Shown here: positions 1 to 16,569 of the stretch, in pieces
How the letters are laid out: every line of letters starts with the position of its first letter
How positions within the stretch are numbered: the first letter of the stretch is position 1
DNA from: an uncultured Pseudomonadota bacterium
Lineage (GTDB): Bacteria; Lernaellota; Lernaellaia; Lernaellales; Lernaellaceae
Length of the DNA stretch: 16,569 nucleotides
Reading direction: 5' to 3'
Assembly: GCA_937967875.1 (NCBI GenBank)
Contig: CALBTQ010000010.1
Coordinates: 1 to 16,569, forward strand
Made by a program: the position numbers and the translations under genes
Notes under the pieces: generated by a model
What the model saw: the letters and a program-made list of their open reading frames with translations, nothing else
What the model was told of the DNA's origin: nothing
The model's database searches: none

Positions 1-29
1 TGGAGTTCAGACGTGTGCTCTTCCGATCT
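1..29 (-). other. Illumina TruSeq adapter (library artefact)
   Basis: These 29 bases are the last 29 bases of the reverse complement of the TruSeq read-1 3' adapter, ending in the diagnostic CTCTTCCGATCT. They are not genomic. Read in frame with the first gene they encode the well-known spurious start Met-Leu-Phe-Arg-Ser. They are also an exact reverse complement of 16524-16552, so the window appears to have terminal inverted repeats. Genomic sequence starts at 30. Confidence 0.98.
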
Positions 30-839
30 GAACGCGGGTGGGCCGCGCCGGCGCTGCTCAAACGCTGGGGCCTGCGCCTGCTGCGCCTGGGCGGATCGCT
101 CGCCGGTCGGCTCGCGCCGCAAGTGGTCCGGCTCACGCGCAAACACGCGCGGCCGATTCACCCCAAGCATCTGCTGCCGGAAGGGCGCGATCATTATTGG
201 TACTCCGACGAACTGGCCGGCGGAACCGTCGCCCTTGATGTCGGCTGCAACGTCGGCGCGCACACGGCCTTCGCGGCCAAACAGGGCCTGCGCGTGATCG
301 GCTTCGACATCGACCGCCGGGCGTTGGCCCACGCGCGCTACGTGCTGGACGAACAACGGGCGCAACGCGCGCTGGTTCTGCGCGCCGGCGCGGACGAGAC
401 GTTCCCGGTCGCCGACGCCTCTTGCGACCGCGTGCTGGCTTTCGACGTCATCGAGCATCTGCGCGACCCGAACCATCTGCTCGCCGAAATCGACCGCGTG
501 CTGCGCGCCGACGGCCTGTTGCTGCTCACCGCCCCCAACGCCGAAACGACCTGGAAAAAACGCTATCGTGCGGCCGGGCTGGATTCGTTCGCCGACCCGA
601 CCCACCGGGTCGAATACACCCGCGCGGGCCTGCGTGAAACGCTTGCCGCGGCCGGTTTTACCGTCGTGCGCGAGGAGCCGATTGTGCTCGATACGCCGCT
701 CGCGCCGTGGTACGATTTGCTCGGGGCCTGCTCGTTGCGACTCTACGCCCGGCTGGCCGACCGCAAACGGCGAGCGGCATTGGCCCGCCCGGACGACTCC
801 ACCGGCTGGCGGCTGGTGGCGCGAAAGGCGTCGGCATGA
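30..839 (+). CDS. Class I SAM-dependent methyltransferase, 5' truncated
   Basis: The protein is a cytoplasmic methyltransferase of the Methyltransf_11 type, probably acting on a sugar or lipid-linked glycan intermediate. Counting from the first genomic codon at 30, the S-adenosylmethionine loop LDVGCNVGAH begins near residue 69. It is followed by the acidic ribose-binding motif GFDID and, further on, by DVIEHLRDP and a GLLLLTAPN strand, in the order expected of a Rossmann-fold methyltransferase. The true start is missing because the sequence runs into adapter; the GTG at 15 is adapter-derived. About 65 residues precede the SAM loop, so most of the protein is probably present. The stop overlaps the next gene's start (ATGA at 836-839), which suggests translational coupling with the glycosyltransferases downstream. 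The family is clear; the acceptor is unknown. Confidence 0.9.
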   Translation, partial: ERGWAAPALLKRWGLRLLRLGGSLAGRLAPQVVRLTRKHARPIHPKHLLPEGRDHYWYSDELAGGTVALDVGCNVGAHTAFAAKQGLRVIGFDIDRRALAHARYVLDEQRAQRALVLRAGADETFPVADASCDRVLAFDVIEHLRDPNHLLAEIDRVLRADGLLLLTAPNAETTWKKRYRAAGLDSFADPTHRVEYTRAGLRETLAAAGFTVVREEPIVLDTPLAPWYDLLGACSLRLYARLADRKRRAALARPDDSTGWRLVARKASA

Positions 840-2149
840 TGCACGTGGCCTTGCTGCACGAATACTTCGTTCCGCACGCGCCCGGCGGCGCGGAATGGTC
901 CACCCTGCACCTGGCGCGCGCGCTGGCCTTGCGCAATCTGCACGTCACCGTCATCACCACCGATCTGGCCGACGAAGCCACGCGCGCTGAAGCCGAGCGG
1001 GTGGACGCCGAACTGATTAACGACCGCATCCGCGTCGTGCGTCTGCCCTTCGACCGCAAAATGAGCGGCCCGCCGCAGGCCTTTCCCAGTTACGTCTTCG
1101 GCGCGCGGCGCACCGAGCGTTACCTGGCGCGCGCGCTGCTGGCGTCCGGAGTCGAGCCGGACATCTACCACGTACAGGGCCTGGGGATTCTCGTGGCCGG
1201 CCGCGAAGCGGCGCGGGCGCAGGGCAAGCCGCTGGCGTTGACGATCCGCGATTACCGCGCGCTGTGTCCGGTGGCGCTGTGTTTGCACCGCGACTATCTG
1301 CCGCCGATGTACTGCGGGCGGAAAAAATTCAACGCCTGCACGCGCGAGTATCTGGACGAATACGGCTATCGCCTCGGCCTGATGGGCCGCGTGCGCCACC
1401 GCGTGCGCCGCGAGTTGGAATGGCGGGCGCGACGTCGGCAGGCGGCGACGTTGCGCGACGCCGACGCGACGATCTTCGTTTCCGACGCCACGCGAATGAT
1501 CTACAACGCGGCCAACCTGCAGGGCCGCCGCAGCGCGGTCATTCACAATCTGCCTGCCGTCGATGAGGAAGGTGCGACCGCCGCGCAGGTGCGCGATCGC
1601 TACGGGCTGGACGGGCCGGTGGTGTTGTTCGTCGGGCGCTGGTCGCTGGGCAAGGGCGCGCAAGAGTTGAGTGAAGCTTGGCCGCTGATCGCCAAGGCGC
1701 ATCCGCAGGCGCAACTGGTCGTCGCCGGACGCACCGAATCCGCGCTGAAACCCGAACCGGCCGAACGCGTGATCTTCACCGGCGGCCTGCCGCACGCGGA
1801 CGTCATCGGACTGTATCGTCTGGCCGACGTGGTCGCGTTGCCCTCGCGCTGGCCCGAGCCCTACAGCCGCGTGGCGCTCGAGGCGATGCACGCGGGCAAG
1901 CCCGTCGTCGCCACGCACGCCGGCGGCAATCCGGAGCAGGTCGTCGAGGGCATGACCGGCTACATCGTGCCGCGCCGTCACGCGCCCGCGTTCGCCGAGG
2001 CCGTCAACCGTCTCTTGGCCGATCCGCCGTTGGCGCGCCGTCTGGGCGAGGCGGGCCGGCAACATTTGACGGAAGCGTTGAGCGGCGAGCGTCAGTTGGA
2101 TATGCTGATCGCACTGTACAAGCAACTGCTCGGCGAGGGGAGAAGCTGA
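836..2149 (+). CDS. GT4 family glycosyltransferase
   Basis: This 437-residue GT-B retaining glycosyltransferase should transfer a sugar from a nucleotide donor to a growing lipid-linked glycan at the inner membrane. The N-terminal half opens with HEYFVPHAPGGAE (residues 8-20), the glycine-rich loop of GT4 enzymes. A cysteine-containing stretch (C144, C149, C160, C168) follows the DYRALCP motif seen in a subset of the family. The C-terminal half has FVGRWSLGKG (265-274), whose Arg and Lys normally contact the donor phosphates, and an intact EX7E pair at E341 and E349, followed by GKPVVATHAGG. The ATG at 836 gives the usual 4-base overlap with the upstream stop; ATG 839 is also possible. The frame is open further upstream to 707, but that stretch overlaps the methyltransferase and looks unlike a GT. 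Donor and acceptor are unknown. Confidence 0.93.
   Translation: MMHVALLHEYFVPHAPGGAEWSTLHLARALALRNLHVTVITTDLADEATRAEAERVDAELINDRIRVVRLPFDRKMSGPPQAFPSYVFGARRTERYLARALLASGVEPDIYHVQGLGILVAGREAARAQGKPLALTIRDYRALCPVALCLHRDYLPPMYCGRKKFNACTREYLDEYGYRLGLMGRVRHRVRRELEWRARRRQAATLRDADATIFVSDATRMIYNAANLQGRRSAVIHNLPAVDEEGATAAQVRDRYGLDGPVVLFVGRWSLGKGAQELSEAWPLIAKAHPQAQLVVAGRTESALKPEPAERVIFTGGLPHADVIGLYRLADVVALPSRWPEPYSRVALEAMHAGKPVVATHAGGNPEQVVEGMTGYIVPRRHAPAFAEAVNRLLADPPLARRLGEAGRQHLTEALSGERQLDMLIALYKQLLGEGRS
2137..2142 (+). promoter_or_regulatory. Shine-Dalgarno site supporting the TTG start at 2152
   Basis: GGGGAG lies nine bases before TTG 2152, inside the end of the preceding gene. It is the main reason for choosing this non-ATG start, which places Met directly before RICAPATSL, a normal GT4 amino terminus. 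Confidence 0.6.
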
Positions 2150-4382: not shown

Positions 4383-5465
4383 GTGTCGCACGTGTTGATG
4401 CTCTTCAACCGTCCGCGCGCCGCCCTGCTGGCGGAGGCCGAGCAGGGGCGTTGTCCCGACGAGCTGCTCTACGGTCTGCGCACGCTGCGCGAACGCGGCT
4501 GGTCGGTCGAAACCAGCGACGACGGGTTCGCGCCGTCGTTGAATGCGCGCGCTTATCGGCTGCTCAACGATGCGCTTTCGCACGGCGGCCGGCGCACCGG
4601 CTTTCATCTGAAACAGGCGTTGCGCCTGCGCGCCCGGATGCGCCGCGCGGATCTGATCTTCGCCACCGCCGACAGCAGCGGCATGCCCGTGCTGCTGTTG
4701 CGCGCGCTCGGATTGCTCCGCACGCCGGTGGTCTACTCGTCGATCGGCCTGGCCGAAACCTTCGGCGAGCCGGTCGGCGCGGTGTATGGCCTGTACCGTC
4801 GCCTGCTGCGCGAAGCGGCCGCCGTGATCGTCTACGCGCCCGACGAACGCGACGCACTGATCAAGCTGTTCGGTCTTGCGCCGGAAAAAGTGCGCTTCGT
4901 GCCCTTCGGCGTGCAGGCGGAATTTTTCGCCGGCGACGCGACGACCGACGGACCGCCGCTGGCTTTCGGCATCGACCACCGCCGCGATTGGCCGACCTTC
5001 TTCGCCGCCGCGGCCGGTTACGACGGCACGCTGGAACTGGTGACCAATCCCGACCTGCTGCGCGGATTGGCGCGGCCGCGCAACGTGGTCGCCTTGAATC
5101 CCGAGCCGATCGTCGATTTGCGCGCCCGGTTGCAGCGCGCACGCTTCGTCGTGCTGCCGGTGCGCGACAACAATTACAGCGGCGCGACGATCAGCCTGTT
5201 GCAGGCGATGGCCGCGGGCAAGGCGGTGATCGTGTCGCGCACGCGGGCGGTCGCCGAGGGTTACGGGCTGGTCGACGGCGAGAACTGTCTGCTCGTACCG
5301 CCGGGCGACGTGCCGGCGCTGGCCGCGGCGCTCGACCGCCTGGCGCAAGACGAAGCGTTGGTTGAACGCTTGGGCGCCAACGCGGCGGCGCACGTGGGCG
5401 CGCACCACGACATCGGTCATCTGGCGACGGCGCTGGAGACCGTCTGGCGCGAGGTGCGGCCATGA
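4383..5465 (+). CDS. GT-B (GT4-like) glycosyltransferase lacking the EX7E pair
   Basis: This 360-residue protein has a GT-B layout. The amino terminus MSHVLMLFNRP is followed by a Rossmann-like half with VVYSSIGLAE and FVPFGVQAEFF, where GT4 enzymes have their inter-domain linker. The C-terminal half carries LPVRDNNYSGATISLLQAMA and GKAVIVSRTRAV, then the tail pattern ENCLLVPPGDVPALAAAL. That tail pattern is typical of GT4 enzymes. At the catalytic EX7E positions it has S266 and Q274 instead of two glutamates, a variation shared with the transferase at 9305. It may be active with different chemistry or serve as a partner. GTG 4383 is preferred over TTG 4377 because of the GGAGGG spacing. The stop overlaps the flippase start (ATGA, 5462-5465). 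Confidence 0.85.
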   Translation: MSHVLMLFNRPRAALLAEAEQGRCPDELLYGLRTLRERGWSVETSDDGFAPSLNARAYRLLNDALSHGGRRTGFHLKQALRLRARMRRADLIFATADSSGMPVLLLRALGLLRTPVVYSSIGLAETFGEPVGAVYGLYRRLLREAAAVIVYAPDERDALIKLFGLAPEKVRFVPFGVQAEFFAGDATTDGPPLAFGIDHRRDWPTFFAAAAGYDGTLELVTNPDLLRGLARPRNVVALNPEPIVDLRARLQRARFVVLPVRDNNYSGATISLLQAMAAGKAVIVSRTRAVAEGYGLVDGENCLLVPPGDVPALAAALDRLAQDEALVERLGANAAAHVGAHHDIGHLATALETVWREVRP

Positions 5466-7795
5466 TCCGCCGCGTCGCGCAACGGTTGAGCTTCGATCTG
5501 GATTATTATCTATCTGGATATTCTCTATTATTCGTCGACCAATTCATCACGTTGGCCACCGGCCTGGCCACGACCTGGTGTTTCACCAACCTCGCGGCGA
5601 AGGAAGTGTACGGCGGGTACGCGCTGATCGTTTCGATCGCCTCGTGGTTGACGATGGTCACCTTGCCCGGCGTGGGGCAGGCGATTCAACGGTCGTCGGC
5701 GCGCGGCTTCGACGGCGCGTTCATGGTCGGCATGCGGCGGCGCTTGACGGCCGGGGCGGTCGGCAGCGCGCTGATGCTCGTGATCGCGCTGGTTTTTTTG
5801 TTCGCCGGGCGCACGATGCTGGCCGGCGGCGCGCTGGCGGCGTCGGTGCTGTTTCCCTTCGTTTACGCGATGGACGATTTCCGCGGCGTGTTGTTCGGCA
5901 AGCAACGCGTCGGCGTCTACGTGGCGTTGCACGGCGTCATTCAGGCCGCCGTCGCCGCGTCGACGATCGTCATGCTGGTGCTGGGCTGGCCGCTGATCGC
6001 GATTCTCGCCGCGAACATGGGCGCGCGCGCGATGGGCCACCTGGCGGCGGTCGGGCTGATCCGCTGGAAGTTCCTGACCAACGACAAGGTCGACGACGAG
6101 TTTCACAGCTTCGGCTGGAACCTGAGTCTGGTCGGCGTCGTCGGCGGCACCAGCGCGCAACTGGACCGCATCATCGTCGCAGGCATGCTTGGCCTGGAGG
6201 CGATCGCCGCGTACGAACTGGCTTACCGGTTGACCGATCCGATGCGCAACCTCGGCGTGTTCCTCAACAAATTGCTGTTTCCGCGCGTGGTGCGCGTGTC
6301 CGGCGCGGCGGTGGCCGGGCGGTTCCTTTCGCGCATTGTGCCGCTGGTCGCGGGACTGACGATCATCGGCATCGTCGGCTCGCTGCTGTTCGCGCCGGCG
6401 ATGCGCTGGCTGTTCCCCAAGTATCCGGAGGCGATTCCCTATGCGATCTGGATGTTCTGGTCAACGCTGGCCGCCGTGATACTTATTTACTTGGAAACGT
6501 ACTACATCAGCCAGGATCGTTTCCAGCGCACCTATTATGCGGCCGCCGCGGCGCGCTCGATCGGCGTGATCGCGCTGCTGCCGTTTTTCATCCACTGGTG
6601 GGGCGTGTTCGGCGCGATCTGGGCGCGTTTTTTGGTGCGCGGCGCGCAGGCGCTGGCTTTGCTGGTCAAGTTGTTTTTCGACCGGCGCCTGCTCGAACGT
6701 GAGGAACTGGCCGACGCAACCGGCGACGACGAGATGGTGCGCGAAGCGTCGCCCTGCCCGCTGTGCGGCGATGGAGCGGGCGCGACGATCTACCGTGTGC
6801 CGGATCGACTGAGCGGCAAGCCCGGATTGTTTTCGCTGCGGCGCTGCGCCAGTTGCGGCCTGGTGCGGCAGGATCCGCGCGTGCCGCTCGCCGCGATCGG
6901 CGCGCATTACCCGGACGATTACGCGGCGCGCCGGCGGGAAACGAAACGTGCGTCCGGCGGCGAGCGCGCCTTGCGGCGGCGGCGCGATTGGCTGGCGTGG
7001 GTGGCGGCGAATCGTCCGGGCCCGCGCGACATCGGCTGGCGGCGCACGTTCGCCTTGTGGCCGGCGCGGTGGAGCGCTTGGGTACGACGCGGGCGCGACA
7101 ATCCGTTGGCCGCGCCGGGCAAGGGGCGCAAGATGCTGGACGTCGGATGCGGCGAGGGCGATTTTCTGCAAGAGATGACCGCGCTCGGTTGGCGGGCGTT
7201 CGGTCTGGAGCCGCATCCGGCGACGGCGGAAGCGGCGCGGCGGCGCGGTCTGAGCGTGATCACCGGCGCGTTGCCCGAGCAGGCGGCGCAGTTGCCCGGT
7301 CCCTTCGACGCGATTGCGCTGCGCACGATCGTCGAACATCTGCCGGATCCGGCGGCGTTGTTGCACGCGGCGCGCGACTTGCTGGCGCCCGGCGGCGTGC
7401 TCGTCGTGCAGACGGTCTACCATGACGGCTGGGCGGCGCGCCTGGCCGGGCTGCATTGGGCGCACTGGGATCAGCCGCGGCATTACGTGTTGTTCACGCG
7501 CGCGCATCTGAGCGCGTTGTTGCGCACCTGCGGTTGGCGGCCGGTGGCGGCGTACGATCGTTCGTCGGCGACGTCGTGGCTGGAGAGTCTGGACAATCGC
7601 CTGGCGGCGGGGCCGTTCGGCGAGTGGCTGGGTAAATTTGCGCGGCGCCGTTGGGCGCGGGTTTTAACGACGTTGCCGGCGGCGCTGGTCGATCGGCTCG
7701 GGCACGGCGACGCGGGGACGATCATCGCGGTGCGTGACGATGCGCCGGCCGCCGGATGGGCTCCGCGGGAAATACGGGATACACTGATCAAATGA
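5462..7795 (+). CDS. Wzx-type flippase fused to zinc-ribbon methyltransferase
   Basis: This 777-residue protein joins two activities usually encoded separately. Residues 1 to about 415 are a multi-pass membrane protein of the polysaccharide biosynthesis/MOP flippase type, with roughly a dozen hydrophobic segments (for example near 18-38, 48-68, 95-137, 290-320, and 330-410). Such proteins move undecaprenyl-linked repeat units across the inner membrane. From about 425 a methyltransferase follows: a zinc-ribbon with C432/C435 and C462/C465, a linker, then the SAM loop LDVGCGEGDF (559-568), a VEHLPDP motif and APGGVLVVQT. This Zn-ribbon plus methyltransferase layout is common in O-antigen clusters. 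There is no stop between the halves. ATG 6734 (M425) could start a separate methyltransferase, but no Shine-Dalgarno site precedes it at normal distance. Codons 14-24 are unusually AT-rich. The stop overlaps the next start (ATGA, 7792-7795). Confidence 0.88.
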   Translation: MIRRVAQRLSFDLDYYLSGYSLLFVDQFITLATGLATTWCFTNLAAKEVYGGYALIVSIASWLTMVTLPGVGQAIQRSSARGFDGAFMVGMRRRLTAGAVGSALMLVIALVFLFAGRTMLAGGALAASVLFPFVYAMDDFRGVLFGKQRVGVYVALHGVIQAAVAASTIVMLVLGWPLIAILAANMGARAMGHLAAVGLIRWKFLTNDKVDDEFHSFGWNLSLVGVVGGTSAQLDRIIVAGMLGLEAIAAYELAYRLTDPMRNLGVFLNKLLFPRVVRVSGAAVAGRFLSRIVPLVAGLTIIGIVGSLLFAPAMRWLFPKYPEAIPYAIWMFWSTLAAVILIYLETYYISQDRFQRTYYAAAAARSIGVIALLPFFIHWWGVFGAIWARFLVRGAQALALLVKLFFDRRLLEREELADATGDDEMVREASPCPLCGDGAGATIYRVPDRLSGKPGLFSLRRCASCGLVRQDPRVPLAAIGAHYPDDYAARRRETKRASGGERALRRRRDWLAWVAANRPGPRDIGWRRTFALWPARWSAWVRRGRDNPLAAPGKGRKMLDVGCGEGDFLQEMTALGWRAFGLEPHPATAEAARRRGLSVITGALPEQAAQLPGPFDAIALRTIVEHLPDPAALLHAARDLLAPGGVLVVQTVYHDGWAARLAGLHWAHWDQPRHYVLFTRAHLSALLRTCGWRPVAAYDRSSATSWLESLDNRLAAGPFGEWLGKFARRRWARVLTTLPAALVDRLGHGDAGTIIAVRDDAPAAGWAPREIRDTLIK

Positions 7796-9318
7796 GCAAC
7801 GGATCAAGCGATAGCGGCAAACCGCTGATCGATCGCGGCCTGCAGCGGGTCGGCGAATCGATGGCGGCGACGCCGCGCGGCGCGTTCGAAGCGGTGTTGA
7901 TTTTCCTGGCCGCGCTGGCGTTGGTGTATCTGTTCATCGCCAAGTCGCCTTACTATGCGATCGGCGCGGTGGTCGTATTGTTCGCCGTGCTCTTTTTATT
8001 GCGCAAACCGATTCTGCTTTCCTACACGCTCTTGCTGCTGGTGCCGCTGTACTGGCTCAACCTGCTGGGTCGCAGCCTGCGGGTGATCACCGTGCTGACT
8101 TTGATCGCGGTGGCGTACCATTCAGTCAAGATCGTGCTGGCGCGCGAACCGCTGCGCTTCAACCGAACGTACCTGGCCATCGGCCTGTACCTGATCAGTT
8201 GCGCGCTGAGCCTGGTCAATTCCAGCGACTTGGAATTGTCGTACCTGGGCACCAAATATTTTCTGCTGGCCATCGCGATGGGCTGGGTGCTGATCGTCAG
8301 CGTGCGCACCAAGGAACAGTTGCGCGTCTTGTTTCTGATCCTGCTGGCCTGGGGCGTGGCGCAGGCGATTCTGGGGATGCTGCAGACCTTCGTGTCGATC
8401 AAGTTTTTCCCGGCCTACTACTTCCACACCTTCGGCCTGCCGATCGTCGACGCCTATTCGGTCGGCGGCGTGCGGCGCGCGTCGGGGACGTTCCAGATCG
8501 GCCCGCGCTACGCGATGTATCTCATGCTGCCGCTGGCGATCATGGTGGCCGGCTTTATGTCGCGGACGATCTTTCACCGCCGCACCTGGCTGATGCTGCT
8601 GGCGCCGTTCGTCTTCGGTATTTTCGTCAGCCTCACGCGCATCGCCATCGCACTGAGCCTGGTTTTCGTGGTGTTCTACAATTTCTTCGCCCGCCGCCGG
8701 CAAGCGCTGATGGGCAGCCTCGCGGGCCTGCTCGTGCTCGGCATTCTCGTGGGCACGGTGGCGTTGATCATCCCCGCCGACGTCAAATACGCGCTCGGCA
8801 AGCGTTTCGGCGAAGAGGACGACGAAGTCTACAAGGACCGGCTGTACTTTTTGTGGAACGCCCTGGGCGCGTTCACGGAAAATCCGCTGCTGGGCATCGG
8901 CGTGGGCACGTACGAAAGCCGCTCGTGGGAGTTCATGCAGAAATACCCGGTGCCTTGGCGACAGGTGCGCTGGGACGTCGCTGCGCAGCGCAACATGCCC
9001 GAGTCGGTACCGGTGCACAACGAGTACGGACGCATGTTGGCCGAGCAGGGCATTTTTTCGATCCCGATTTTTCTCTTCCTGCTTTATACGGCGTTTCGCA
9101 ATCTCAGCTACGCCTACCGCTATACGAAGGACGAATTCGTGCGCACGATGGCGCTGGGCTTGTCGATGTTTCTGCTGTCGATGTCGGTGTACTGGTACTT
9201 CCATGAATATTTTCTGGAAGAGCCGTACACGTCGATTTTGCCTTTCGCGTTCAGTGTGATCATCTACAACCTCGTTCGCGATGAACAGGAGGCGTCGCCG
9301 GACAATGCGCAGGCCTGA
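7792..9318 (+). CDS. O-antigen polymerase/ligase family membrane protein (Wzy/WaaL type)
   Basis: This 508-residue integral membrane protein would polymerise repeat units (Wzy) or ligate the finished chain to lipid A-core or another acceptor (WaaL) on the periplasmic face. It has about ten to twelve hydrophobic segments with a large hydrophilic loop late in the chain (about 335-420). Signature motifs of the Wzy_C/O-antigen ligase family are visible: RRASGTFQIGPRYAMYL (228-244), SLTRIAIA (280-287), NPLLGIGVGTY (364-374), and VHNEYGRMLAEQG (408-420), including the conserved His-Asn. Sequence alone does not separate polymerase from ligase; the flippase directly upstream favours a polymerase. ATG 7792 is chosen for its 4-base overlap with the upstream stop. 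ATG 7756 is an in-frame alternative that would add 12 residues. No strong ribosome-binding site is seen, consistent with coupling. Confidence 0.9.
   Translation: MSNGSSDSGKPLIDRGLQRVGESMAATPRGAFEAVLIFLAALALVYLFIAKSPYYAIGAVVVLFAVLFLLRKPILLSYTLLLLVPLYWLNLLGRSLRVITVLTLIAVAYHSVKIVLAREPLRFNRTYLAIGLYLISCALSLVNSSDLELSYLGTKYFLLAIAMGWVLIVSVRTKEQLRVLFLILLAWGVAQAILGMLQTFVSIKFFPAYYFHTFGLPIVDAYSVGGVRRASGTFQIGPRYAMYLMLPLAIMVAGFMSRTIFHRRTWLMLLAPFVFGIFVSLTRIAIALSLVFVVFYNFFARRRQALMGSLAGLLVLGILVGTVALIIPADVKYALGKRFGEEDDEVYKDRLYFLWNALGAFTENPLLGIGVGTYESRSWEFMQKYPVPWRQVRWDVAAQRNMPESVPVHNEYGRMLAEQGIFSIPIFLFLLYTAFRNLSYAYRYTKDEFVRTMALGLSMFLLSMSVYWYFHEYFLEEPYTSILPFAFSVIIYNLVRDEQEASPDNAQA
9287..9292 (+). promoter_or_regulatory. 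Shine-Dalgarno site AGGAGG for the gene starting at 9305
   Basis: A perfect AGGAGG lies inside the end of the polymerase/ligase gene, twelve bases before ATG 9305. The gap is somewhat long, but this is the strongest such site in the plus-strand run and supports that start. Confidence 0.55.
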
Positions 9319-10359
9319 AATTCTGTTTCTCGCCAACTGGCCGCGCACGCATCGCGCGACCGGCGAATACGCATTTTTCGCGCATTGGCGCAGTCGGCCG
9401 CGCGTGAAATTTTTCGGCACGTTTTCGCTGGGCGCGTTCACCCGCTGGGAAAAATATCGGCTGCGTTTCTACCTGCTGCAACCGCTGCTCGCCCTGTTGC
9501 GCGCGCCGTTTTACGACGCGGTGATCGCCTTCTCGTCGCAAAGCGGCCTGCCCTTCGCCGCGCTGCTGCGTCTGTGTTTTTGGATGAAAACAAAACTGAT
9601 CGTCTTCGACGTCGAGTCGTTCGGGCGCGCCAAAAGTGGGATGAAGCTGCGCCTGGTGCGCTTCGGCGCGCGGCGCATCGATCATGTGATCTACGCCTCG
9701 CGCGCGCAGGAAACGTACTACGACGCCTATCTGCCGTTTCTGGGCGAGCGCCGCACGTTTGTGCCCTTGGGCATCGGACAGTCCGCGCCGCCGCCGGTCG
9801 GCGATGCCGGTGGCGACGGGCCGCTGCTGGCGCTGGGCAAGCACGGGCGTGCGTTCCGCGATTGGGCGACGCTGCTGCGCGCCTATGCGACGCTCGAGAA
9901 TGCGCCGCCGTTGCGGATCGTCGGCCGCGCCGATCTGCCTGCTGCCGAGCGCGAGAACGTCGAGCTGCCGCCGGGCGTCGAGCTGATCGACTATCTGCCG
10001 ATCGACGAGTTGCGCGCGCTCATCGCGCAGGCGCGGGCGATCGTGCTGCCGCTGCCCGAGCGCGAGCAGAGCCTCGGCCAGTTGTCGTTGTTGTTATCGA
10101 TGGCGCTGGGCAAGACGGTGGTCGCCAGTCGGATCATCGGGCTGACCGATTATCTGCGCGACGGCGAAACGGGGCTTTCTACGCGCCCGGCGACGCGGAC
10201 GATCTGGCGCGCGCGCTGCGCGAGTTGCTGGCCGATCCGGCGCGCGCCGTCGCGATGGGCCACGCGGCGCGGCGGGCGGTCGAGGAAAAGTTCAACGACG
10301 AGCTCATGGGCCGTCGCTGGGAAGACGTCTTTTTCGCGGTGACGAACCTGCCGCGCTGA
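9305..10359 (+). CDS. GT-B (GT4-like) glycosyltransferase with a one-base frameshift
   Basis: The first 290 residues, from ATG 9305, read as a GT-B glycosyltransferase: MRRPEILFLANWPRTH, a linker-region RRTFVPLGIGQ, LALGKHGRAFRDWATLLRAY, then LPEREQSLGQLSLLLSMALGK and GLTDYLRDGETG. At GGGG (10171-10174) the frame breaks. The expected GT4 tail (FYAPGDADDLARALRELL and onward) continues in the frame one base back, to a stop at 10357-10359. Without correction the frame ends at 10342 with an arginine- and serine-rich tail that does not look like a GT. Adding one G to the run restores a protein of about 351 residues. This is either an assembly or sequencing error or a real inactivating mutation. 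Like the protein at 4383, it lacks the EX7E glutamates (S256 and L264 instead). The gene overlaps the previous one by 14 bases. Confidence 0.82.
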
Positions 10360-11835
10360 TCAATCCAGATAACGCCACAGATCGTAGGCCGTCATCTGCT
10401 CGTGCATGCGACGATTGATGTCGTGATTGTCGCAGTGATGGCAATAGTCGGTATACAGCGGCTTGCCGTCGCGCATCAGCAGTGTGCCCGCGCGGCGCAG
10501 GTCCTTCGCCGCCAGCCGTGCCTGATGATACAGTCCGCCGGTCCACAGTTGATCGAAGGGTCCTTCGCTCAGATTCGCCACCGGTTTGACCGTGCAGCAG
10601 AACGACAGATCGCCGTTTGATTTGGCCAGTCCCAGCGCCCAACCGATGAAACACCCGTGATCGACGAACTCGTCGCCCGACCATTCGTCGGGATTCTTGT
10701 CGCTGTGCTGCACCTGGTGCGGGTAGGCGTCCCACAGTTTCAGCTCCAGGTCGCGGCAGCGTTGAATGAGGTTGGGCAGGCTCGCCTGCAGCCAGGCGAC
10801 GTCGTGGTCGGTCAGCGCCAGCCCGCGGTTGTATTCGTCGACGCGCAGCAGTTGCGGGCGCAGGCCGTCGAAGCCCAGCTCGGCGGCAAGGTCGGCCATC
10901 GCCAGCAGTTCGTAGGCGTTGGTGCGGCAGATGACGTTGACCATCCACGCTTCGGGGTGCGGCGTGTCGGCGGCTTCGCGCAGGGCGAAAAAGCGCCGCA
11001 GGTTGTCCATGAGCTCGCGCCACTCGATTTCGCCGACGGCGTGGTGCAAGCGCGAGTAGGTTTCGCTCGTCGCCGCGCTGACGGTGCAGAACATTTCCTC
11101 GGGACCGGCCGCGACGATCGCTTGCGCCGCTTCCTCGTCGAGCAACAGACCGTTGGTGAAGAAGTTGACGCGCAGTCCTTTCTTGCGCGCATAGACGATC
11201 ATCCGCACGAAATCCGGGTGCAGCATCGGTTCGCCGTTGGCCAGCACGGTCACGCCGTCCGTGCCCAGGCGGGCCAACTCGTCGACGGTCGCGGTGAACT
11301 GCTTGAAGGGCAGCACGGTGTCGAGGAAATCGCGGCCCGGTTGGCGGCAGGGCGCATGGATGTTGCAATAATGGCAGCGCGCGTTGCAGCGGTTGATCAC
11401 CTCGAAGACGAACCAGTGCGGCCCGATCAGCGCGGTGTCGCACAACACGCCCAGCAGCCGCAGCAGGTCGGTTTCGTTGCCGGTCGTGGCGCGCTCGCTG
11501 ATGTGCTCGAGCAGCGGCATGAGCAGCATGTCGTCTTCGATCAGCTTGACGCGGCAGCGGCGCCCTTGGTTGCGCAGCCAGACCAGATGATCGGCGAAGC
11601 GCTGCGCCAGCGTGGTCGCCGGATGCGGATCGAACGGTTCGATGTCGTAGTCGACGCCGCGCCGGCGGCAGGCCATGTCGATGATCGCTGCCAGATGAAA
11701 TGCATTGGCCCGACGCACCGGCACGTGAACTTCATCGGCGGCGGCCAATTGCGCGAGCGCCTCGGTAAACGAGCCGGCCTGGCCGGCGAGGCGGTCGTGC
11801 AACTGCGCGTCGTTTCCGAACAACGTCACGGCCAT
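10360..11835 (-). CDS. Radical SAM protein with SPASM-like C-terminus (paralogue 1)
   Basis: This 491-residue protein has a radical SAM core with the [4Fe-4S]-binding CxxxCxxC at C150, C154 and C157 (NRCNARCHYC), followed by the SAM-contacting ANGEPMLHP near 199-207 and FFTNGLLLDE. About 140 residues precede the cluster and are not recognisable by eye. The C-terminus has the SPASM-like pattern C395, C413-C414 and C465/C468, suggesting auxiliary iron-sulfur clusters. Substrate and reaction are unknown; known SPASM enzymes modify peptides, proteins or small molecules. It is the last gene of the minus-strand run. It overlaps the preceding gene by 10 bases and has its own Shine-Dalgarno (GGAAGGA, nine bases upstream). 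The stop abuts that of the convergent plus-strand gene. The frame is open well upstream of ATG 11835, but that part is a shadow of the paralogue. Confidence 0.92.
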   Translation of the reverse strand: MAVTLFGNDAQLHDRLAGQAGSFTEALAQLAAADEVHVPVRRANAFHLAAIIDMACRRRGVDYDIEPFDPHPATTLAQRFADHLVWLRNQGRRCRVKLIEDDMLLMPLLEHISERATTGNETDLLRLLGVLCDTALIGPHWFVFEVINRCNARCHYCNIHAPCRQPGRDFLDTVLPFKQFTATVDELARLGTDGVTVLANGEPMLHPDFVRMIVYARKKGLRVNFFTNGLLLDEEAAQAIVAAGPEEMFCTVSAATSETYSRLHHAVGEIEWRELMDNLRRFFALREAADTPHPEAWMVNVICRTNAYELLAMADLAAELGFDGLRPQLLRVDEYNRGLALTDHDVAWLQASLPNLIQRCRDLELKLWDAYPHQVQHSDKNPDEWSGDEFVDHGCFIGWALGLAKSNGDLSFCCTVKPVANLSEGPFDQLWTGGLYHQARLAAKDLRRAGTLLMRDGKPLYTDYCHHCDNHDINRRMHEQMTAYDLWRYLD

Positions 11836-13388
11836 GTGGGCGGATCCTTCCGTAGCAGAGGGCGCAACTGCAGGTCGTCGAGATCGCAAAGCGCCTGGTT
11901 GATGAACTCGTAATTGCCGCAGTAATCGCAGTCGGGCCCGAGCAGCGGCCCGCCGCAGTTTTCCTCGATCAGTTCCGGATTGACCGACAGGTCGAACGCC
12001 TTGGCCGCCTGGCGCAGCTTGCGGTAGCGCTCGGAAAACCAGATGTCGGCGAAGCGGCCGCGGTACAGCGAGCCGACGATTTTGTCGTGGCAGCAGAAGC
12101 TGAGCCGCCCGTCGGAAAAGGCGCGCCCGAAAAACCATCCCGCCAGACAGCCGGTCTGACTGTACAGATCGCGGCTCCAATGGAAGGGCAGCACGTCGGG
12201 CGACAACTCGAAGGTCTTGCCCGCCTGCGGCAGTTGAAACTCGATGTTGGCGACGATCTCGACGCCCGCCGCTTCGGCCTTGCGCCGTGCGCGCTGCAAT
12301 TGGGCCTCGACCGCCGCGTGCTGTTCCTTGGTGATCAGCAGATCGTCGAAGCTCGCGCCGCACGAATGCATGATCTGGTAGCGGACCGCGTCGACGCCGA
12401 CCTCCAGCGCCATGTCCATCGCGCCTTCCACCTCGTGCGCGTTGAGGCGGTTGATCACGTGGGCGAGAATAATGTACGGCTTGCGGTTCTTCGCGTTTTT
12501 CTTGCGCGCCAGTTCCTTGATCGCGCGCACCATCGGCGCGAACTTTTCCGCGCCATGCGCCGGCTGTTGCTTGGCGAAGGTTGCCGGCGACGCCGCCGAC
12601 AGCGACCAGTAGAAAATATCCAGATCGACCTCGACGAACAGATCGCTGATTTTCTCGTCGACCAATAGGCCGTTGGAAAAGACCGTCAGCCGCTGCCCCT
12701 TGCCGCGCACCTTGCGGATCATCTCGACGATGCGCGGGTGCGTCAGCGGTTCGCCTTCGCCGGAAAACAGAATGTCTTCGCGCGTGCCGATCGCCGCGAG
12801 GTCGTCGACCAGCGTTTCGAAAATCTCATAGTCGATGCGTCGCGTTTTCCAGCCCTCGGTGAAGCGCCGGCCGCGCATCGGTTTTTGCGGCTCGATCAGC
12901 AGCGGCGAGTGCAAACCGCAGAAAATGCAGTTCGTGTTGCACAGGTTCGACACGTCTAAATGGAACGTCTGCGGGCCGATGAAGCAGCCGTCGGTGAGCG
13001 CGCCCAACAGCCGCAGCAGGTTCGCGCGATTGTCCGCGTCCAGCGCGGCGTCGTATTTCTCCAGCAACTCGCGCAACGCGGGCGACGGTTCGTCGATACG
13101 CACCGGCGTGTCGGCCAGGCGCGCGCGCAGTTCATTGAGATGCCGCGCGAAAGGTTCGCGCAACTCGTGATGATCCTGCGGGTGAAAATCGGGCAGTTCG
13201 GCCGACCGACCGCACAACGACAACGCGTAGCGCGCGGTGCGTCCCAGGCGCCAGAGCGTCGCGGGTGCGGGCATGATCGAGGCCGCGTCGCCGTTGCGGA
13301 TGCGCGCGGTCGCGGCGGCGAAAGACAGCTCGGGGGACAGCGGATCGTGATCGGCCGCGCCGTCGGCGAACAGGCGCACGTCAGTCAT
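11826..13388 (-). CDS. Radical SAM protein with SPASM-like C-terminus (paralogue 2)
   Basis: This 520-residue radical SAM protein has its CxxxCxxC at C150, C154 and C157 (NLCNTNCIFC), exactly the same positions as in the gene downstream. SGEGEPLTHP follows at 209-218, then VFSNGLLVDE and WSLSAAS. The carboxyl end has C414, C432-C433, C478 and C487/C490, a SPASM-like set for auxiliary clusters, with SFCC and CDYCGN signatures. The stretch LLRLLGALTDG...IGPQTFHLDV before the cluster matches the downstream protein closely, so the two are paralogues, probably from tandem duplication. It also shares an NIEFQL stretch with the truncated radical SAM protein at 15650. ATG 13388 is chosen for its TGGAGG six to seven bases upstream and an 8-base overlap with the preceding stop. 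Substrate is unknown. Confidence 0.92.
   Translation of the reverse strand: MTDVRLFADGAADHDPLSPELSFAAATARIRNGDAASIMPAPATLWRLGRTARYALSLCGRSAELPDFHPQDHHELREPFARHLNELRARLADTPVRIDEPSPALRELLEKYDAALDADNRANLLRLLGALTDGCFIGPQTFHLDVSNLCNTNCIFCGLHSPLLIEPQKPMRGRRFTEGWKTRRIDYEIFETLVDDLAAIGTREDILFSGEGEPLTHPRIVEMIRKVRGKGQRLTVFSNGLLVDEKISDLFVEVDLDIFYWSLSAASPATFAKQQPAHGAEKFAPMVRAIKELARKKNAKNRKPYIILAHVINRLNAHEVEGAMDMALEVGVDAVRYQIMHSCGASFDDLLITKEQHAAVEAQLQRARRKAEAAGVEIVANIEFQLPQAGKTFELSPDVLPFHWSRDLYSQTGCLAGWFFGRAFSDGRLSFCCHDKIVGSLYRGRFADIWFSERYRKLRQAAKAFDLSVNPELIEENCGGPLLGPDCDYCGNYEFINQALCDLDDLQLRPLLRKDPPTWP
11845..11851 (-). promoter_or_regulatory. Shine-Dalgarno site for the gene starting at 11835
   Basis: On the minus strand, GGAAGGA sits nine bases before ATG 11835, inside the 3' end of the preceding radical SAM gene. 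It fixes the start of a frame that is open for more than 500 bases upstream. Confidence 0.55.
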
Positions 13389-14409
13389 CGTCCGCCTCCA
13401 GGAAGCGCCGATGCGCGGCGACGGTGAACACGCGAAACGCGCAGGCGGCGCAGGCGAAATCGGTCGGCCCCTCGCCCAGCGTCCAGGCGCGCGCGGCGAG
13501 CATCGCCGGGTGATTCCACAACGCGAGCGGATCGTCGCCGGGCAGACGGCCGAGCACCGGGCGCGGCGCCGGCGCTTCGAACAACGCCGAACAGCACCCC
13601 TGCACCACGCCGTCGTGACGCACGGCGAGCAACCGATAGGGCTGCTCGCAACGCGTCGTCCCCGCCAGCGGCGGCAGCGACAGCGCGACGTCATGTTCGC
13701 GCGCGGCCTGTTCGGCTTCGTAAAACACGAGCCGCGCGTGCTCGGCGACGCCCAACGCGCTGCTGTCGGCCTGGGTGCGCGAGTAGATCTTCTGGTGGAA
13801 GACGCGCACCTCGTGCACGTCGTGCGCGCCGGCGAGGGCGACGATCGCGGGCAGTTCGTCGAGGTTGTCGACCTGCAGCGTGACGTTGAAAACCGTGTGC
13901 AACGTGGATTGGCGCTCGCGCAGTCGTTGCAGATTGGTCAGTACTTCATGCAACGAAACGCCGCGGCGCAAGCGCGTGAGCTCCTCGTCGGCCGCGTCGA
14001 CGCTCAGCACGATTTCGTCGAGCCCGGCCGCGATCAGCCGCGCGGCGCGCCGGTCGTCGAGTTCGCCGCCGCCGGTGATGATCGTCGTGGCGCAGCCCGC
14101 CCCTTTGGCGCGGCGCAGAATCTCGTCGGTGATGTCGGCCAGCAGCGGCTCGCCGTAGCCGCCGACGAGCACCGTTTGCGCGTAGGGCAGCAGCGGCGCG
14201 AGCGCGTCGAGCACCGCCGGCGACAGATCGCCCGGCGCGTTGGCGGCGCGGTCGTAAAAATTGCGCGCGCAGGTCGGACAATTGCGGCGGCAGCGGTTGG
14301 TCGCTTCGAGCTGCAGTTCCACCGGCAGGCAGGTCAGCTCGGTCCGACCCTTTTCGCGTTCCAGCGCCTGCAGCGCCGCGTTGATGCGCCGACGATCCGG
14401 GCCGGTCAT
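13381..14409 (-). CDS. Radical SAM protein, shorter and divergent, with SPASM-like C-terminus
   Basis: This 342-residue radical SAM protein has its CxxxCxxC near the amino terminus (C40, C44, C47 in EATNRCRRNCPTCARN), so it lacks the roughly 110-residue extra N-terminal region of its neighbours. VGGYGEPLL (82-90) is the SAM-binding GGEP-type motif. LSVDAADEEL resembles the strand that follows in SPASM family proteins. The carboxyl end has C254, C272-C273 and C320/C323, the same twin-cysteine plus CxxC pattern as the other three. The gene starts at ATG 14409 with a 4-base overlap (ATGA) with the ABC ATPase stop. An in-frame ATG ten codons earlier (14439) lies inside the ATPase gene and is less likely. 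It is probably translationally coupled with both neighbours. Its reaction is unknown. Confidence 0.9.
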   Translation of the reverse strand: MTGPDRRRINAALQALEREKGRTELTCLPVELQLEATNRCRRNCPTCARNFYDRAANAPGDLSPAVLDALAPLLPYAQTVLVGGYGEPLLADITDEILRRAKGAGCATTIITGGGELDDRRAARLIAAGLDEIVLSVDAADEELTRLRRGVSLHEVLTNLQRLRERQSTLHTVFNVTLQVDNLDELPAIVALAGAHDVHEVRVFHQKIYSRTQADSSALGVAEHARLVFYEAEQAAREHDVALSLPPLAGTTRCEQPYRLLAVRHDGVVQGCCSALFEAPAPRPVLGRLPGDDPLALWNHPAMLAARAWTLGEGPTDFACAACAFRVFTVAAHRRFLEADDD

Positions 14410-15653
14410 GACAGATCCCCGAGCCGCGACAGACTCCATCGGTTGGGCATGCGCACCAGGCCGCCGCCATCGCGTCGATCGCTGACCACGGAGAGGATGT
14501 AGCGGAACTCGTGGATGTCGTATGGCGTTTTCGCCGTGTAGCTTTGGTATTCGTCGGGCCAGAGGCCCACGTTGATGTAGTAGTCGCCGGTCAGCAGGTT
14601 CAGTTCGGAAAATTCGCAGGACGCCTCGTACACGCCCTTGCCCAGCGGGCCGAAATCGAGCTGATGCCGAAAGGTGTTCGAGCCGGCGATGAGCAGCCCG
14701 TCATTGCGGCGGAACTGCACGCGCAGGCACGGATTGCCGATCGGCTCGTCGACGCGAAAACGCACGCGCACGGTCAGCGCGTTGCCGCTGTGTACCGAGG
14801 CCGCCTCGCGTCCGGCGTCGTCGAGCAGATGCACCTCGACCAGGTGCGCCTGCCCGGTGCGTTCCAGGCAGCAGGAAATCGACTCGTCCTGCAGGCGCAT
14901 GATCGGCGCTTCGATGCTGCTGTAGCGCTTTTCGCACGCCTCGATGTACTGCTGCACGACCGTGTCGGTCTTGCCGATCATCGCCATCTTGCCTTCCTGC
15001 AGCAGGATCAGCCGGTCGCAGAACGTCGACACGTCCGAGAGACTGTGGCTGGCGACGACGATCGTTTTGTTCTGCTCCTTAAAGGCGCGGATGGCGTTGA
15101 TGCACTTGCGCTGGAACAGGTAGTCGCCGACGGCGAGCACTTCATCGACCAGCAGAATGTCGAAGGGCACGTGGATCGCCACGGAAAAACCGAGCCGCAC
15201 GACCATGCCGAAGCTGTAGGTTTTGATCGGATGATCGATGCGCTCGCCCAGCCCCGAAAAATCGTGGATCACGTCGAACAGTTCGTTGATTTGGGCCGCG
15301 GTCATGCCCAGCAGCGCGCATTTGATGTGCACGTTTTCGCGCCCGGAAAAATCGGGGTTGAAACCGGTCGTCGGATCCAGGATGTAGCTGACCTTGCCGT
15401 TGATCTCCAACTCGCCCGCGGTCGGATAGGAGGTCTGCGCCAGGATCTTGAGCAGCGTCGATTTGCCCGAGCCGTTGTCGCCGATCACGCCCAGGCATTC
15501 GCCCTGCGCCACGTCGAAATTCAACTCGCTCAGCGCGCGCTTGGTGTCGTGAAACACGCGCCGGTTGAGCGTCACCATCTCTTTGAATTTCTGCGCGCGG
15601 CGCGAATAGATCTTGTAGACCTTCGTCAGATTGCGCGCGGCGATCGCTTTCAT
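14406..15653 (-). CDS. wzt: Wzt-like ABC transporter ATPase with C-terminal carbohydrate-binding-type domain
   Basis: This 415-residue protein is the nucleotide-binding subunit of a polysaccharide ABC exporter (Wzt/TagH/KpsT type), acting at the cytoplasmic face of the inner membrane. Motifs in order: Walker A GDNGSGKST (58-66), a Q-loop region, signature YSFGMVVRLGFS (146-157), Walker B DILLVDE (165-171), and switch His203 in VASHS. The amino terminus before Walker A has the long insert typical of this family. From about residue 245 a beta-rich domain follows (for example LRVQFRRNDGLLIAGSNT and GDYYINVGLW), matching the Wzt C-terminal domain that in E. coli O9a binds the modified end of the glycan. 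The signature reads YSFGM rather than the family's common YSSGM. No Wzm-type permease is in the window. It overlaps both flanking radical SAM genes by 4 bases. Confidence 0.92.
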   Translation of the reverse strand: MKAIAARNLTKVYKIYSRRAQKFKEMVTLNRRVFHDTKRALSELNFDVAQGECLGVIGDNGSGKSTLLKILAQTSYPTAGELEINGKVSYILDPTTGFNPDFSGRENVHIKCALLGMTAAQINELFDVIHDFSGLGERIDHPIKTYSFGMVVRLGFSVAIHVPFDILLVDEVLAVGDYLFQRKCINAIRAFKEQNKTIVVASHSLSDVSTFCDRLILLQEGKMAMIGKTDTVVQQYIEACEKRYSSIEAPIMRLQDESISCCLERTGQAHLVEVHLLDDAGREAASVHSGNALTVRVRFRVDEPIGNPCLRVQFRRNDGLLIAGSNTFRHQLDFGPLGKGVYEASCEFSELNLLTGDYYINVGLWPDEYQSYTAKTPYDIHEFRYILSVVSDRRDGGGLVRMPNRWSLSRLGDLS

Positions 15654-16523
15654 TCATCCCCCGGCAATAAGGGCGTCACCCCGGTTTCCCGGGCCAGGCG
15701 GCGGGAAGCGAAGTTGAGAATGTAATTGTAGCAGAAGTCGCATTGGCCGTCGCGCAACATGCCGCCGTCCGGCAACCGTTCGTTGTCGCCTTCCGGCATG
15801 CGGATCGCCGCTTCCCGACAGCGGCGCATCCTAGCGCCGCGCCAGTGCTCGTGCAAGGTCGTCTCGTGCGCGTTGCCGAAAAATTTGAGGCCGCAGCAAA
15901 AGCTGATCGCCCCGTCGCGACGCACGCGGATCATCTCGTAGCCCACGTGGCAAGGGATGCGGTCGTACAGGTCCTTGGTGTAGAGCCCCGATTCCAGGTC
16001 GACGTGCGCGAGTTGAAACTCAATGTTGTCGTGGATGTCCAAACCCGCCGCCGAGGCCAGCTCGTGCGCCTTGCGCAGTTCCTGACGGATCGACTCGATT
16101 TCCTTTTCGTCAGGCGCCAGCGGCCGCGCGGCGTCGTTGAGCTCGGTGAGCTTGTACTCGATTTCGTCCACGCCCAGTTCGATCGCCCGGCGGATCATCG
16201 GCAGCACTTCGCGCACGTTGCGCTTGTTGAGCACGTGGACGATGCCGATTTTCAAACCCGGTTCGCGGCGTTCGACGAGCTTGCGGATCGACTCCTCGAT
16301 TTTATCGAACAGGTGCGGCGACATCTCGGGGCGAAAGGCGGCCCAGGTCGGCGCGGTCGCGGCCGACAGCGAAAAGGTGACCATTGCGCGGTGCGCGTTG
16401 GCGAAACGGTGGATCATCGCATCGTTCCACAGCAGGCCGTTGGTGTAGACCTCCCAATCGACGGGCTGCCGTTTCAGCAGGCTGACCAGATCGGCGAAGC
16501 GCGAGTGCAGCAGGTTTTCGCCC
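15650..16523 (-). CDS. Radical SAM protein with SPASM-like C-terminus, 5' truncated (paralogue 3)
   Basis: Only the last 290 residues are present, because the sequence runs into adapter at 16524; the apparent Met-Cys-Ser-Ser-Asp-Leu start is adapter-encoded. The genomic part opens at GENLLHSRF, equivalent to the GEPLTHP motif of its relative at 11826. By analogy about 210 residues, including the CxxxCxxC, are missing. VYTNGLLWND and FSLSAAT follow, then DNIEFQL, and a SPASM-like tail with ISFCCGLKF and CDFCYNY. These stretches match the paralogue at 11826 more closely than the one at 10360. The stop overlaps the ABC ATPase start (ATGA). Its place directly ahead of a glycan-exporter ATPase suggests a role in making or modifying the exported material, but this is inference. 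Confidence 0.88.
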
Positions 16524-16569
16524 AGATCGGAAGAGCACACGTCTGAACTCCAGTCACCGAATACGATCT
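16524..16569 (+). other. Illumina TruSeq adapter with index (library artefact)
   Basis: Positions 16524-16557 match the 34-base TruSeq read-1 3' adapter starting AGATCGGAAGAGC. The next eight bases, CGAATACG (16558-16565), sit where the i7 index belongs, and ATCT (16566-16569) is the start of the following constant part. This is read-through from a short insert that the assembler kept. Genomic sequence ends at 16523. Confidence 0.98.

What the first reader, a model, noticed from the sequence alone, without database searches (positions are those of the whole stretch)
10360..16523. Four radical SAM/SPASM-like proteins packed around a Wzt-type glycan exporter ATPase
All five genes overlap by 4-10 bases, so they are almost certainly co-expressed. 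Each radical SAM protein ends with the same layout of auxiliary cysteines (a lone Cys, a Cys-Cys pair, and a final CxxC). Exporter ATPases with a Wzt C-terminal domain normally sit with glycosyltransferases or a chain-terminating methyltransferase or kinase. A run of four radical enzymes would suggest that the exported glycan, its lipid carrier or a co-exported peptide undergoes several radical modifications such as epimerisation, dehydrogenation, C-methylation or C-C/C-S linkage. This is the best candidate here for an undescribed system.
Basis: partly seen in the sequence, partly recalled or inferred. Interest (0 to 1): 0.75.

Follow-up and report, generated by a model that had tools for sequence, protein, structure and literature searches.

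The report
Radical enzymes tied to glycan exporter
In an uncultured bacterial phylum, the motor of a surface-sugar exporter is encoded next to a radical-chemistry enzyme, often with three more, which suggests that these bacteria chemically remodel a surface sugar by radical reactions before exporting it.

Summary
Five overlapping minus-strand genes (A-Wzt-B-C-D) are present. Gene A is cut by sequencing adapter at the contig end, so its radical SAM motif lies outside the window; full-length orthologues have it. The auxiliary Cys layout (C - CC - CxxC) is invariant in 39 C sequences and nearly so in 26 B sequences; it fits a twitch-type, one-cluster domain. None of the NCBIfam models listed reaches its cut-off. 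The set is conserved in candidate phylum Lernaellota. Of 7 genomes held, Wzt and B are adjacent in 7, A sits directly before Wzt in 5, C is present in 5, D in 4, a Wzm orthologue in 7 (adjacent in 3). A control set of 90 Wzt_C loci from three other phyla shows no such radical SAM gene nearby. The same genomes carry GT4-radical SAM and carbamoyltransferase-radical SAM fusions, and a double radical SAM protein joining both enzyme clades. I conclude that these enzymes most likely act on a glycan or its precursor exported by Wzm/Wzt, with B as the Wzt-linked core. The reaction is unknown. The boldest reading is that B makes the terminal mark read by Wzt's carbohydrate-binding domain. RiPP maturation is disfavoured, not excluded.

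The parts
15650..16523 (-). Gene A, radical SAM/SPASM-twitch protein, 3' part only (5' part lost to adapter)
   Evidence: full-length orthologues in L036/L037/L038/L050 have CxxxCxxC
14406..15653 (-). Wzt: exporter ATPase (Walker A, Walker B, SFGM signature) with Wzt C-terminal carbohydrate-binding domain, 415 aa
   Evidence: PF00005 and PF14524; closest solved sequences TagH and an ABC transporter matched over residues 8-364; motifs
13381..14409 (-). Gene B, radical SAM protein with five auxiliary Cys, 342 aa; neighbour of Wzt in all 7 genomes held
11826..13388 (-). Gene C, about 130-residue N-terminal domain + radical SAM + twitch/SPASM, 520 aa
10360..11835 (-). Gene D, paralogue of C with a similar N-terminal domain, 491 aa
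9281..10359 (+). Convergent glycosyltransferase (GT4); its 3' end reads in a second frame (apparent frameshift)
   Evidence: same convergent neighbour in L036, L037, L050
7756..9318 (+). O-antigen ligase/polymerase-like (Wzy_C)
   Evidence: next to the operon in L036, L037, L050
5462..7795 (+). Wzx-type flippase and SAM-dependent methyltransferase domain in one ORF
   Evidence: 792-aa and 778-aa homologues in L036 and L037
1678..5465 (+). Glycosyltransferases (one ORF with two GT domains, one separate; starts uncertain)
30..2149 (+). Methyltransferase and glycosyltransferase at the start of the neighbouring polysaccharide cluster
16524..16569 (.). Illumina adapter sequence (not genomic)
   Evidence: sequence; adapter identity recalled
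1..29 (.). Illumina adapter sequence (not genomic)
   Evidence: sequence; adapter identity recalled

Best explanation
A glycan modification and export operon of candidate phylum Lernaellota. Shown: the ATPase of an ABC exporter with a C-terminal carbohydrate-binding domain (Wzt) is encoded with twitch-type radical SAM proteins, and B is its constant neighbour, mostly with overlapping ends. Inferred: a lipid-linked glycan, or the sugar donor or lipid-linked unit that feeds it, is built in the cytoplasm. B, and where present A, C and D, use a [4Fe-4S]-SAM cluster to make a 5'-deoxyadenosyl radical that abstracts hydrogen from a sugar carbon, with one auxiliary cluster holding or oxidising the substrate. 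The result is a changed sugar (epimerised, dehydrogenated, deoxygenated or decarboxylated; which one is not known). Wzt binds the finished glycan through its C-terminal domain, and Wzm/Wzt exports it.
For: Wzt orthologues (46-68% identity) occur in 7 of 7 Lernaellota genomes held, with B immediately downstream in 7 of 7; the nearest possible start of B overlaps the stop of Wzt by 4 bases in 5 of 6 loci usable (28 in the sixth). In G003 and G004 Wzt-B stands alone; the neighbours that gave Pfam matches are mostly unrelated. Control: 0 of 90 Wzt_C loci from three other phyla (893 genomes searched) have a radical SAM hit in the fetched flanks, about 6 kb per side where the contig allowed; the same profiles find radical SAM genes in 9 of 9 distant loci L003-L011. 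Of 7 other Wzt-like loci in the same genomes none has an adjacent radical SAM gene, though in 2 of them (L174, L176) the contig ends just behind Wzt. Substrate class: Wzt_C domain; a GT4-radical SAM fusion and a carbamoyltransferase-radical SAM fusion in a cluster with NAD-sugar epimerases; a double radical SAM protein whose first half groups with the GT-fused domains and second half with A/C/D. BlsE and DesII (DesII's sugar substrate is recalled) tie with SkfB as closest folds. No precursor-peptide ORF was found nearby.
Confidence: 0.6

Rival explanations
1. Radical SAM peptide (RiPP) or protein maturation, with Wzm/Wzt exporting a modified peptide or glycopeptide.
For: Enzymes with a SPASM domain usually act on peptides (statement in PMC10352776, passage read); SkfB, SuiB, PqqE and anSME are among the closest folds; weak profile matches to peptide maturases.
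Against: No RRE/PqqD Pfam match; only 17 bases outside genes between 9281 and 16522. Of the small-ORF pairs (20-110 aa) shared between 8 loci, 12 lie outside the known genes on both sides; 10 of them overlap other long ORFs of L036/L050 and 2 lie across gene junctions on the opposite strand. The exporter carries a carbohydrate-binding domain. An unlinked precursor cannot be excluded.
Confidence: 0.15
2. The enzymes modify the lipid carrier or lipid anchor (for example C-C bonds in polyprenol or acyl chains) and Wzm/Wzt exports the resulting glycolipid.
Against: Scores are far below the Tes cut-off (29.9 for D against 450 bits); related domains are fused to a glycosyltransferase and a carbamoyltransferase.
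Confidence: 0.1
3. Metalloenzyme or cofactor maturases (tungsten-oxidoreductase or heme type) that share an operon with an exporter by chance.
For: The highest-scoring NCBIfam hits of B, C and D are TIGR04317 or TIGR04311.
Against: A-D score 36-91 bits (TIGR04317) and 31-97 bits (TIGR04311) against cut-offs of 380 and 400; Wzt-B adjacency in 7 of 7 genomes and no hit in 90 control loci is not chance-like.
Confidence: 0.08
4. Viperin-like antiviral enzymes.
Against: NF038283 viperin model at 26-38.5 bits for B, C and D against cut-off 180; the matches cover the general radical SAM core; glycan-export context.
Confidence: 0.02

Closest known systems
ABC-transporter-dependent O-polysaccharide export with a Wzt carbohydrate-binding domain (Klebsiella O3/O5/O12, E. 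coli O9a)
   Same: Wzt with ABC ATPase and C-terminal carbohydrate-binding domain; Wzm partner; in the terminated Klebsiella systems only chains whose terminal epitope is bound by that domain are exported (PMC11231755, passages read)
   Different: Known termini are made by WbdD-type enzymes or Kdo transferases (PMC3482155 abstract; PMC11231755 passages); here the constant neighbour of Wzt is a radical SAM enzyme
BlsE (cytosylglucuronate decarboxylase) and DesII (radical SAM sugar enzyme, role recalled)
   Different: Antibiotic pathways (DesII recalled), no exporter link known to me; sequence identity 15-16%; BlsE NCBIfam model far from its cut-off
SkfB/SuiB/PqqE/anSME SPASM-twitch peptide and protein modifying enzymes
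   Different: No RRE match, no precursor ORF found, carbohydrate-binding exporter as neighbour
GT4-radical SAM/SPASM fusion proteins (Lernaellota; others named Wallbacteria, Planctomycetes, Myxococcota)
   Same: Radical SAM domain related to C and to the first half of the double fusion
   Different: Fused to a glycosyltransferase, in another cluster. A search with one gave 256 proteins at E <= 1e-40, 120 listed, of which 94 carry both GT and radical SAM Pfam domains. I found no paper on them in the searches made

Membership tests
Radical SAM superfamily | CxxxCxxC [4Fe-4S]-SAM motif | tested here: met
   B, C, D in the window; invariant in 39/39 C and 26/26 B sequences aligned; A only in orthologues L036/L037/L038/L050
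Radical SAM superfamily | PF04055 above cut-off | tested here: met
   D 62.2, C 49.3, B 69.0 bits against 29.5; the A fragment scores 24.7, below cut-off
SPASM (two auxiliary clusters) | seven or eight auxiliary Cys (as stated in PMC10352776, passage) | tested here: not met
   five conserved auxiliary Cys in C (39/39) and in B (three at 26/26, two at 25 of 26 with one gap). PF13186 itself is passed by C (27.1) and the A fragment (25.9), just missed by D (20.1 against 21.5) and not matched by B
Twitch domain (one auxiliary cluster) | C-x(9-15)-G-x4-C ... C-x2-C (rule recalled) | tested here: met
   in C: C414, 12 residues, G427 (38/39), x4, C432; C487-x2-C490. Cluster number itself not measured
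NF033640 twitch domain-containing radical SAM protein | score >= 170 bits | tested here: not met
   C 44.7, B 42.1, A fragment 23.3 bits
TIGR04317 tungsten cofactor oxidoreductase maturase | score >= 380 bits | tested here: not met
   C 91.3, B 85.3, D 74.8, A fragment 36.1 bits; full-length A orthologue 51.9
Wzt (ABC glycan exporter ATPase) | ABC ATPase motifs plus Wzt_C domain | tested here: met
Wzm/Wzt export system | Wzm permease encoded with Wzt | tested here: inconclusive
   not in the window (contig ends in A); orthologue in 7/7 genomes, adjacent in 3; PF01061 in G001
Chain terminator (WbdD/WbbB type) | coiled-coil ruler in the terminator protein | tested here: inconclusive
   longest helix of the C model is 21 residues; B was not modelled
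RiPP cluster | precursor peptide gene in the cluster | tested here: not met
   an unlinked precursor was not tested
RiPP cluster | RRE/PqqD-like domain | tested here: inconclusive
   no Pfam match; N-terminal domain model shows no confident fold match
Prokaryotic viperin | NF038283 score >= 180 bits | tested here: not met
   38.5 (D), 26.0 (C), 34.7 (B) bits

The most novel reading that the evidence does not exclude
B is a radical chain terminator: it makes, by radical chemistry, the modified terminal sugar that the Wzt carbohydrate-binding domain must recognise before export, replacing WbdD-type methyltransferase-kinases, while A, C and D add further radical changes. This would be an export checkpoint that reads a radical-SAM-made mark.
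Probability: 0.18. Interest if true: 0.82.

Novelty: new variant of a known kind. Interest (0 to 1): 0.62.

Why it matters
Radical SAM enzymes are known on peptides, cofactors and a few antibiotic sugars (recalled). A pairing of one with a glycan-exporter ATPase across a phylum points to radical remodelling of surface polysaccharides, for which I found no description in the open-licence papers searched. It gives a defined, testable two-gene core (Wzt-B), and it ties into a set of glycosyltransferase-radical SAM fusions found under names from several phyla, for which those searches gave no described function.
Full report
What is there. The window is a contig whose two ends are adapter sequence (1-29 and 16524-16569; sequences, identity of the adapter recalled). 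Gene A is truncated by adapter, so the window shows three radical SAM motifs, not four; full-length orthologues of A carry CxxxCxxC in L036, L037, L038 and L050.

Conservation. The genome scan found two close relatives (L001, L002) among 11 loci. Their phylum-level group holds 7 genomes. NCBI places Alcyoniella in candidate phylum Lernaellota. Wzt: 7 of 7. B next to Wzt: 7 of 7, in G002 as two pieces. A directly upstream of Wzt: 5 of 7, not found in G003 or G004. C: 5 of 7 (G001, G002, G005, G006, G007), next to B in 4. D: 4 of 7 (G001, G006, G007 after C; G002 on another contig). Wzm orthologue: 7 of 7, adjacent in G001, G005 and G007. In G003 and G004 Wzt-B stands alone; Pfam-matched neighbours include AcrB, penicillin amidase, YhcG and a phosphoesterase, plus, about 8 kb away in G003, an ORF with two radical SAM domains. 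The convergent GT4/Wzy neighbour recurs in L036, L037 and L050. In a 60-row tree A (6 rows), C (6) and D (5) are each 100/100 clades; six B rows form a 99/98 clade with G005_B outside it in a 9-row group with the second B-like genes; the broken G002 B was left out, and the program warns of long branches around B.

Controls. Wzt_C (PF14524) was sought in three other phyla, reached through the distant loci L004, L009 and L007 (by record title Chitinophagia, Acetivibrio and Helicobacter): 25 of 296, 26 of 299 and 35 of 298 genomes had it. All 90 matches listed (27 + 27 + 36) were fetched with about 6 kb on each side where the contig allowed. None has a radical SAM hit at E < 1e-4 with profiles built here; a Wzt homologue is seen in 53 of 54 and 36 of 36 of these loci. 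The same profiles find radical SAM genes in 9 of 9 distant loci L003-L011, in none of which a Wzt homologue was found nearby; these loci were found with the C family, so the sensitivity test is a mild one. Seven other Wzt-like loci in the Lernaellota genomes: none has an adjacent radical SAM gene, but in two (L174, L176) the contig ends just behind Wzt, and one (L172) has a weak hit (E 5e-7) 3.7 kb away and a strong one 11 kb away.

Substrate. The exporter has a carbohydrate-binding domain. The same phylum carries radical SAM domains fused to a GT4 glycosyltransferase (Pfam-tested in G007 and G002; by similarity also in G003, G004, G005, G006) and to a carbamoyltransferase domain (Pfam-tested in G007; by tree position also in G003-G006), in clusters with NAD-sugar epimerases and carbamoyltransferases. 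An ORF of 912-1183 aa with two radical SAM domains occurs in 6 of 7 genomes (not found in G002); its first half groups with the GT-fused domains (18 rows, 99/97), its second half with A, C and D (23 rows, 88/86, below the program's own mark for good support). GT-radical SAM fusions extend beyond the phylum: a search with one gave 256 proteins at E <= 1e-40; of the 120 listed, 94 carry both GT and radical SAM Pfam domains, with names from Wallbacteria, Planctomycetes and Myxococcota among others, and 26 are long proteins with radical SAM but no GT domain, those named being Omnitrophota. No conserved precursor peptide was found nearby. I therefore read the substrate as a glycan or its precursor (inference).

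Mechanism. In the terminated Klebsiella systems described in PMC11231755 (passages read), only terminated chains are exported, and the carbohydrate-binding module of the transporter recognises the terminal moiety; in E. coli O9a the terminus is made by WbdD, a kinase-methyltransferase (PMC3482155 abstract). In the Lernaellota genomes held, the constant neighbour of such a transporter ATPase is B. The simplest reading is that B modifies the glycan that Wzt recognises. The bold reading is that B makes the terminal mark itself. Against the bold reading: known terminators carry a coiled coil, whereas C shows no helix longer than 21 residues and B was not modelled.

Verdict. A real association, so far seen only in this phylum, of a known exporter type with an uncharacterised set of radical SAM enzymes. 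The chemistry is open, and the minimal core (Wzt-B) is directly testable.

Noticed in passing
window 1-29 and 16524-16569: Both contig ends are Illumina adapter sequence (recalled), so gene A is cut artificially and the outermost ORFs translate adapter.
   Followed up: yes
L054:9263-11845, L049:12216-14546, L055-L058: GT4 glycosyltransferase-radical SAM/SPASM fusion protein in 6 of 7 Lernaellota genomes (Pfam-tested in 2); 94 of 120 listed matches elsewhere show the same two domains, including Wallbacteria, Planctomycetes and Myxococcota names.
   Followed up: partly
L054:5987-8647: Carbamoyltransferase N-domain fused to a radical SAM/SPASM domain.
   Followed up: partly
L042, L043, L044, L045, L046, L047: ORF of 912-1183 aa with two radical SAM domains from different clades, in 6 of 7 genomes; in G001 and G007 next to a second B-like gene.
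   Followed up: partly
P0137 (named Omnitrophica): 1440-aa protein with three radical SAM core regions; 26 of 120 proteins listed are of this long, GT-free kind or similar.
   Followed up: no
window 5462-7795: Wzx-type flippase and SAM methyltransferase in one ORF, with similar lengths in L036 and L037.
   Followed up: no
window 9281-10359: GT4 gene reads in two frames near its 3' end: apparent frameshift or assembly error.
   Followed up: no
L040 (G002): The A and B copies of G002 are split over two frames each.
   Followed up: no
window 12999-13388 (minus): N-terminal domain of C, confidently modelled (pLDDT 95) but without a confident fold match in the PDB searches.
   Followed up: partly
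L055:12211-13998: ORF with a radical SAM/SPASM domain and a weaker B12-binding match in the second glycan cluster of G005.
   Followed up: no
L036:13188-14375: GDSL/SGNH hydrolase ORF overlapping and following D in G007, possibly a glycan esterase.
   Followed up: no
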